Below, in pieces: positions 24,697 through 31,622 of a stretch of 32,337 bases of DNA. The stretch spans positions 1-32,337 of the forward strand of contig JAQVIB010000003.1 in NCBI GenBank assembly GCA_028695945.1. Reading direction: 5' to 3'. The notes beneath the pieces are model-generated. The model saw only the letters and a program-made list of their open reading frames with translations. It ran no database searches and was not told the DNA's origin. The translations under genes were made by a program, and so were the position numbers. The first letter of the stretch is position 1. Every line of letters begins with the position of its first letter. The stretch comes from Lachnospiraceae bacterium (GTDB lineage Bacteria > Bacillota > Clostridia > Lachnospirales > Anaerotignaceae).

Positions 24697-25040
24697 CCTT
24701 GGGCGTTGCCCAAACCTACTCGCTTTTTGAAAAAAGCGAGACCAAAAATTTTTATTAAACCGCATATTAATGCGGTTTTAGATGGGTCAATTATGCAATG
24801 GCAAAGACATGCCATCTGTCCGTAGGACAGCTTTGGGTCGCAAAGTGCTGACCAATGCAATGGCAAAGACATACCATCTGTCGGTAGGACAGCTTTGGGT
24901 CGCAAAGTGCTGACCAATGCAATGGCAAAGACATGCCATCTGTCGGTAGGGCAGCTTTGGGTCGCAAAGTGCTGACCAGTGAAACCTTTGTGGGTGTTTG
25001 AGGGTGAAGCCCTCAAGGTTTCGAGCAATGTCCAAGGGTT
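24697..25040 (+). repeat. Interspersed multi-hairpin repeat, copy 2 (expanded)
   Basis: Same ordered hairpins as 3911-4108; contains three 62-bp tandem units; ends TTGAGGG-TGAAG-CCCTCAA. Confidence 0.88.
24794..24979 (+). repeat. Three 62-bp tandem units
   Basis: TGCAATGGCAAAGACATGCCATCTGTC[C/G]GTAGG[A/G]CAGCTTTGGGTCGCAAAGTGCTGACCAA starts at 24794, 24856 and 24918. Confidence 0.95.
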
Positions 25041-29772: not shown

Positions 29773-29809
29773 ATAAGCCGTAACCTAAAATATGGGTTAC
29801 GGCTTTATT
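29773..29809. terminator. Terminator after spoVG
   Basis: ATAAGCCGTAACC-TAAAATAT-GGGTTACGGCTTTAT. Confidence 0.85.
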
Positions 29810-29840
29810 CTTCACAAAAAGTATTAATAAACCAATTACG

Positions 29841-31367
29841 TTACTGAACTTTTGTTGCACTTCCATTTGCTGTAAACGTGCCATCCCATTCCACGGTTTG
29901 AAACATAGTACATGTAATGGGCTTTGATTGCGTGTCAAAGTTCAGCTCCAAAGAAATTTCGGATGACTGATAAACAGCCTTACCTGTAGCACTGTCATAA
30001 TTGCACACTACGGAATCCTCAGCATCTTCCCCACTATGAAAAATCAACTGGTCTCCGTTTAGTTTCATTTCAAACTCCACAGGTTCAGGAGATGAGGTTA
30101 CAGGTTTACCGTCAGGGTCATAGGAGGTAACGCTGCCACTGTATTTGCCTATAATAGCTGTAATATCGCTGGAGTTACTTGCTGCTGGTGGTGTTGCTTG
30201 TGTTTCCTCTTGGGTAATTGGCTCTTCTTCCACAGGGAACTGTTCGAAAATAGACTTTAATTTGTTTATATACTCATCAATATTAATTGAAGTTTGCTCA
30301 ATCAAATCATCCAAAGTTTTCTCTGTAAATTCAGGTGGTTGGGCACCAACTGCAATAATCTCTTTTTCAATTTCCTCTGGGGTCTTTCCGTTGGTATTAA
30401 TTTGCCATATGCTGTCTTTATCAACTTTAGTACCATTTAGTTTAAAACCAGCAATTTTATTTTCGTAAAACCAGTCAGCAAGGTTATCGCCTATAAAAGC
30501 CAATTTTTCACCTGCTGTGGCACTGTCAAAACCTGCAATTCCAAAAACAAATGAAACAGGAGCAAAGCTGTTTTTCATCTTATCAAATTCAACATATACG
30601 TTATTGTTTTCCCCTAAAACTATATTACTGGAAGTTGCACCTATATCTATAATTACATCAACTCCGCTAACAATTATACCAGCAGATTGACCTAAGGTTG
30701 CACCTCCTGCAAGTGCGGAAACTCCACCTGCGGTAGCGATTGTTCCGCCTATAAAAAGACCGGTTTTACACACTGTTTTAGTGGTTGCGGCATAATCCAT
30801 CCATTTTTGATAAAGGTCGGCTTCTTCATTTGCTGCTTCACCATGAAGAATATTTTGTGCCATGGTAAGTTGCTTAAAAGCAGTTTTTGCATCTACACCC
30901 AGTTGTTCACCCAACTGTTTTAACTTGTTTGCACCTTTAACAGCGTCATATTGACTTGTTATTTTATTTGCCCATTCTTAAGCTTCATTTGCACCATAAA
31001 CAGTTTGCACCATTCCCAGGGAAAATTGGCTTTTATTTTGTGGAAGTGAGTTAGACATACTTACAGTACTTGTTTCTTTATCTGCAACGGCAGGAATAAC
31101 TTGTGCCATTTTATTTGTTGCTTCCCAAGCTTTTTGGGTTTCATCCACAAGGGCATATAAATCCTCACGAGGTATTGAGTTAATATCAATTGAAACCAAC
31201 TTATCTGTAAGCAATCGTGCATATACATAACTATGTACTGTATGAACAACAACTGTATTCAGCTCTTGTGAAACAATATCAGAGTTAGCCGCAGTTGGCT
31301 CTTTTGGCGAGCCACATCCAGATAAGGTTAGTAACAAAATAAGTAATATGCTTATGAATTTTTTCAT
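29841..31367 (-). pseudogene. Lipoprotein gene split by one in-frame TAA (parts 30978-31367 and 29841-30977)
   Basis: The two ORF-track entries share a frame, separated by TAA at 30980-30978 and 21 open codons (EWANKITSQYDAVKGANKLKQ). N-part has lipobox LSGC and RBS AAGGAGG; the downstream ORF starts at a TTG with no RBS. Confidence 0.8.
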
Positions 31368-31622
31368 AAATCCTCCTTTTTCAATTAAATAATTTTTCTA
31401 CACGTTGTTAAAAGCTATTTTAAGCGGGTTACAATAGTGTAGCGATTATTTTATCATAATAGGCACTGTGTTTCAATCATAACATTAAACTATGGATTTA
31501 CAAATTCTATATGGAATATTCTTAGGCTTAAATATATTTTTAGACTGCTATTCATTTCAAAGGCATAAACTTTTTTTTTGCTAATATAATTAGATAGTAG
31601 ACGAAGCTAAAGGAGGGTAAAT

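What the first reader, a model, noticed from the sequence alone, without database searches (positions are those of the whole stretch)
29841..31367. Single in-frame TAA splits a 508-codon lipoprotein gene
ORFs 30978-31367 and 29841-30914 are in the same minus-strand frame. Between them only one TAA interrupts ...VQTVYGANEA*EWANKITSQYDAVKGANKLKQLGEQLGVDAK.... The 21 codons after the stop read as sensible protein and the second ORF lacks an RBS. Options are a recent nonsense mutation (one change from GAA, AAA or CAA), phase or strain variation, sequencing error, or a truncated functional N-terminal lipoprotein.
Basis: seen in the sequence. Interest (0 to 1): 0.6.

Follow-up and report, generated by a model that had tools for sequence, protein, structure and literature searches.

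The report
Lone stop codon in accessory lipoprotein gene
In this draft genome rebuilt from a mixed microbial sample, one surface-lipoprotein gene is cut by a single stop codon; every complete relative that spans that point is one unbroken gene and other genes of the same draft (including core enzymes) carry similar lone stops, so this is an ordinary nonsense change or a draft-sequence base error, not a new mechanism.

Summary
On the minus strand, a 129-codon lipoprotein ORF (ATG 31367, good Shine-Dalgarno, lipobox) ends at TAA 30980-30978. The same frame stays open for 378 further codons (chance about 8e-13) with no ribosome-binding site. Both pieces match one protein family in order: about two dozen homologues in Firmicutes, Chloroflexi and other anaerobes read through this point in one frame. 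The stop lies in the linker between an N-terminal helical domain and the conserved core. The core shows no sign of decay (43 of 55 conserved positions kept, like intact homologues of similar divergence). The gene is accessory: the same-genus genome lacks it between spoVG and the SPOCS-domain gene. The window belongs to a 74%-complete, 226-contig draft, and a 504-kb sample holds three or four other lone in-frame stops (TAA and TGA), including gdpP and serA. I found no suppressor tRNA, readthrough structure or recoding. Most likely it is a recent nonsense substitution or a draft-consensus base error; reads are needed to tell which. Interest is low. The protein family has no Pfam, NCBIfam or PDB counterpart.

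The parts
30978..31367 (-). Upstream ORF (129 aa): lipoprotein signal peptide, lipobox Cys18, N-terminal helical domain
   Evidence: aligns to the N-terminal 130-170 aa of intact homologues; helices in the model of an intact homologue, moderate confidence
31372..31379 (-). Shine-Dalgarno AAAGGAGG before ATG 31367
30978..30980 (-). In-frame TAA, in the linker between N-terminal domain and core
29841..30977 (-). Same frame after the stop: 378 codons, conserved Gly-rich core (start WA..IT.QYD) and a predicted C-terminal beta-barrel; no RBS
29841..30914 (-).
   Evidence: no Shine-Dalgarno; start lies inside the conserved core
29807..31555 (.). Segment (gene plus upstream region) absent from the same-genus genome G001, where spoVG terminator and SPOCS gene are adjacent
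29775..29805 (+). Terminator hairpin after spoVG, conserved in G001; left border of the extra segment

Best explanation
This is one gene, not two. It encodes an exported lipoprotein of an uncharacterised family: lipid anchor, helical N-terminal domain, conserved Gly-rich core, predicted C-terminal lipocalin-like barrel. A single base substitution has put a TAA in the linker before the core. If the base is real, ribosomes stop there and only a 129-residue anchored N-terminal stub is made, so the core is lost and the gene is very probably inactive. If it is not real, it is a consensus base error, or a base taken from a minority strain, in a fragmented draft. Shown: one frame in homologues, lone stop, no RBS, no decay after the stop, further lone stops in the same draft, patchy presence. 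Inferred: inactivation, recency, and the choice between error and mutation, which I put at about even with a slight lean to error.
For: About two dozen homologues are uninterrupted across the point. The two halves match one profile in order. No second lesion in 378 codons, and 43 of 55 conserved core positions are kept, like intact homologues of similar divergence (L136 43/59, L139 43/53). The draft is 74% complete in 226 contigs, and the stop is 1.4 kb from the contig end. A systematic scan of 504 kb found three other convincing lone stops: gdpP (TAA; halves match NF011110 positions 109-328 and 337-682), serA (TGA; PGDH positions 35-189 and 195-316) and an SLH-domain protein (TAA); a further likely one is a small exported protein (TAA, L072). 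None was found in 332 kb of same-genus G001, and few or no frameshifts in G000. The gene is accessory: absent from G001 at the same spot, in 3 of 58 genomes of the family and 10 of 392 of the order.
Against: No reads or conspecific genome were available, so error and true mutation cannot be separated. Three or four extra lone stops in about 0.5 Mb is also within the range of ordinary bacterial pseudogene content (my knowledge, not tested). The 0 in 332 kb against 4 in 504 kb contrast is weak (expected 2.6 at equal rates, P about 0.07), and the L072 case was not found by the systematic scan.
Confidence: 0.88

Rival explanations
1. A real nonsense allele fixed or segregating in the species (the 'mutation' half of the best explanation taken alone): loss of an accessory surface lipoprotein, on the way to the gene-less state seen in the sister genome.
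For: Gene is patchy and absent at the same site in G001, so loss is tolerated. Other lone stops exist in the draft.
Against: gdpP and serA are hit in the same way in the same draft, which fits random base errors somewhat better than selective loss of an accessory gene. No further decay in the 378 codons after the stop.
Confidence: 0.42
2. Programmed or tolerated readthrough of TAA (in-frame stops in functional bacterial genes have been proposed to be common, PMC7918605), giving a small amount of full-length protein.
For: The downstream part looks constrained. The literature reports dN/dS below 1 around conserved in-frame stops, 0.74 for TAA.
Against: That study counted only stops shared by two or more genomes; here none of the homologues has a stop. 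No structured RNA at the site (z = +0.63). TAA is the main terminator here (127 of 197 long genes). No suppressor tRNA among the few tRNAs in the sampled contigs (sample incomplete).
Confidence: 0.04
3. The stop makes a functional split: a free N-terminal lipoprotein plus, possibly, a separately started core.
For: The stop falls in the linker between domains.
Against: No homologue is split; no Shine-Dalgarno for the downstream part; its first start lies inside the conserved core and it would lack any export signal.
Confidence: 0.02
4. Genome-wide stop-codon reassignment (TAA or TGA read as sense).
For: Several in-frame TAA in one draft.
Against: TAA, TAG and TGA all end normal genes (127, 37 and 33). 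Lone stops include both TAA and TGA. 55 coding G001 genes aligned over 18,301 aa to G000 show no internal stop apart from one at residue 4, beside an uncertain start.
Confidence: 0.005

Closest known systems
Intact homologue in Anaerotignum neopropionicum DSM-3847 (NZ_LRVM01000008.1; L028/L132, 549 aa)
   Same: Lipoprotein signal, N-terminal helical domain, linker, conserved core, C-terminal domain; 37% identity over the whole 378-codon downstream part
   Different: One uninterrupted ORF; different genomic neighbours (a dapB-like gene downstream)
Anaerotignum sp. MB30-C6 homologue (NZ_CP133078.1; L029/L136, 616 aa)
   Same: Same core, 44% identity over the first 247 residues after the stop
   Different: Anchored by zinc ribbon plus transmembrane helix instead of a lipobox; uninterrupted
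Bacterial genes with in-frame stop codons (Belinky et al. 2021, PMC7918605)
   Same: Lone in-frame stop with coding-like sequence after it
   Different: Their cases are stops conserved in two or more genomes; here one draft only

Membership tests
Pseudogene or nonsense allele of a single-ORF lipoprotein gene | Homologues encode one uninterrupted protein across the stop | tested here: met
Pseudogene or nonsense allele of a single-ORF lipoprotein gene | Sequence after the stop is homologous, in frame, without its own translation start | tested here: met
Pseudogene or nonsense allele of a single-ORF lipoprotein gene | Stop is present in the organism's DNA, not only in the assembly | not testable with these tools
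   no reads and no second genome of the species; the other lone stops in the draft make error plausible
Programmed stop-codon readthrough | Stop conserved among orthologues, or a stimulatory RNA element or suppressor tRNA | tested here: not met
   no homologue has a stop; z +0.63; no suppressor tRNA in sampled contigs, sample incomplete
Two-gene (split) organisation | Orthologues encoded as two ORFs with an RBS for the second | tested here: not met
Alternative genetic code | The codon is read as sense throughout the genome | tested here: not met
Bacterial lipoprotein | Signal peptide with lipobox Cys | tested here: met
   LTLSGC seen in the sequence; Pfam LPAM_1 only below its cut-off (13.8 of 20 bits)

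The most novel reading that the evidence does not exclude
The linker before the core is a natural separation point in this undescribed family (many intact members carry a hydrophobic run ending VAYAAE there, resembling a protease cut site), so a stop at that spot would mimic a processed, still functional N-terminal lipoprotein.
Probability: 0.03. Interest if true: 0.45.

Novelty: already known. Interest (0 to 1): 0.12.

Why it matters
Mostly as a caution: single in-frame stops in fragmented drafts should be checked against reads before being read as biology, since core genes (gdpP, serA) show the same lesion here. A side product is an undescribed, patchy family of anchored surface proteins in anaerobes with no Pfam, NCBIfam or PDB counterpart.

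Tried and rejected
Searches of Pfam, NCBIfam, PADLOC and PDB with the family gave nothing meaningful for the core. Phage, plasmid and viral collections have no relative, so no sign of mobile carriage. No target-site duplication or terminal repeats were noted at the borders of the extra segment in the repeat list. Frameshift was considered and rejected: the frame is the same on both sides. The L129 homologue (Mageeibacillus sp. UBA5747) is also broken in the linker, but by a frame change at a run of six C about 0.25 kb from a contig end, a different lesion and probably an assembly error. The comparison with G001 proteins was noisy until antisense ORFs were removed by codon score. Structure prediction of an intact homologue was low confidence in the core (mean pLDDT 51); only the C-terminal barrel is usable.

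Full report
Observation. The minus strand carries ATG 31367 with AGGAGG just before it, a signal peptide with lipobox (LSGC), 129 codons, TAA at 30980-30978, and then 378 open codons in the same frame to the stop at 29841. At the base composition of that stretch a run of 378 open codons has probability about 8e-13. The first start codon after the TAA is TTG 30914, without a Shine-Dalgarno.

One gene or two. Both halves match one family profile in order, with the TAA as the only interruption. Homologues were found in 3 of 58 genomes of the taxonomic family and 10 of 392 of the order (the two weakest matches, at E about 6e-6, cover only the N-terminal part), and in a wider collection: Anaerotignum, other Clostridia, Anaerolineaceae and other Chloroflexi, Smithella, Lentisphaerae and Fusobacteria drafts. 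Every homologue whose contig covers the point is one ORF of roughly 510 to 760 aa (one of 1125, and one of 423), except L129, which has a frame change in a run of six C about 0.25 kb from a contig end. None is organised as two genes.

Anatomy. Members have either a lipobox or a zinc ribbon plus transmembrane helix, then a helical N-terminal domain, a linker often reading VAYAAE, a conserved core (WAe..T.qYD...g...QLa..LGtDak.A..q..lAq.I, then Gly-rich hydrophobic stretches and gvD.ivD...t.S.i..gEn..V), and a variable C-terminal domain. A model of the intact Anaerotignum neopropionicum protein is poor in the core (mean pLDDT 51) but shows a C-terminal beta-barrel at pLDDT about 80, whose best matches are lipocalins (E 1.6e-3, TM-score by target 0.43; suggestive only). 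The stop sits in the linker, so a truncated product would be the anchored N-terminal domain alone (inference).

Age. Of 55 core columns conserved in the other members, the window sequence keeps 43; intact homologues of similar divergence keep 43 of 59 and 43 of 53. There is no sign of decay after the stop, so the change is recent or not real.

Setting. In the same-genus genome G001 (flanks 83% identical at DNA level) the spoVG terminator is followed within about 90 bp by the SPOCS-domain gene; window 29807-31555, this gene and its upstream region, is missing there. The gene is therefore accessory. It is single-copy in its own draft.

Error or mutation. The draft has 226 contigs and is 74% complete. 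In 504 kb sampled from it, a codon-score scan found lone in-frame stops in gdpP (TAA), serA (TGA) and an SLH-domain protein (TAA) besides the one in question; a fifth likely case, a small exported protein (L072, TAA), came from an earlier unfiltered list. For gdpP and serA the two halves match adjoining parts of one family model. None was found in 332 kb of G001. Frameshift candidates are few and unconvincing. About 4.4% of single substitutions in these genes would create a stop, so four or five stops would correspond to about two substitutions per 10 kb if all were random errors (my estimate). This leans towards base errors or mixed strains but does not exclude true nonsense alleles.

Special decoding. 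TAA ends 127 of 197 long genes, TAG 37, TGA 33. No RNA structure at the site. The only tRNAs in the sampled contigs were Gly, Trp and two Ser. Readthrough and recoding have no support. Belinky et al. 2021 (PMC7918605) argue that conserved in-frame stops can be functional, but they required the stop in two or more genomes; here it is in one draft only.

Verdict. A confirmed but ordinary finding: a lone nonsense codon in an accessory lipoprotein gene of a draft genome, whose reality needs read support.

Noticed in passing
L079:1292-3280 (-), L118:5525-6712 (+), L071:3-1061 (+), L072:6601-7401 (+): Other genes of the same draft with a lone in-frame stop: gdpP (TAA), serA (TGA), an SLH-domain protein (TAA) and a small exported protein (TAA).
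   Followed up: yes
window 24793-24978: Three tandem copies (96% alike) of a 62-nt unit (ATGCAATGGCAAAGACATGCCATCTGTCGG...). A 25-nt core of it also occurs once each on two other contigs of the draft (L110, L112) and not in the sampled part of G001.
   Followed up: partly
L029/L136, L026, L027 versus window and L028: The same uncharacterised core occurs on two kinds of anchor: lipobox lipoprotein or zinc ribbon plus transmembrane helix. Some contigs carry two members close together (L024, L125).
   Followed up: partly
L132, L142, L136, L135 linker before the core: Conserved hydrophobic run ending VAYAAE or TAYAAE in mid-protein, resembling a signal-peptidase-like cut site; possible processing point.
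   Followed up: no
L129:1-300: Homologue in a Mageeibacillus draft broken by a frame change at a run of six C in the same linker, about 0.25 kb from a contig end.
   Followed up: partly
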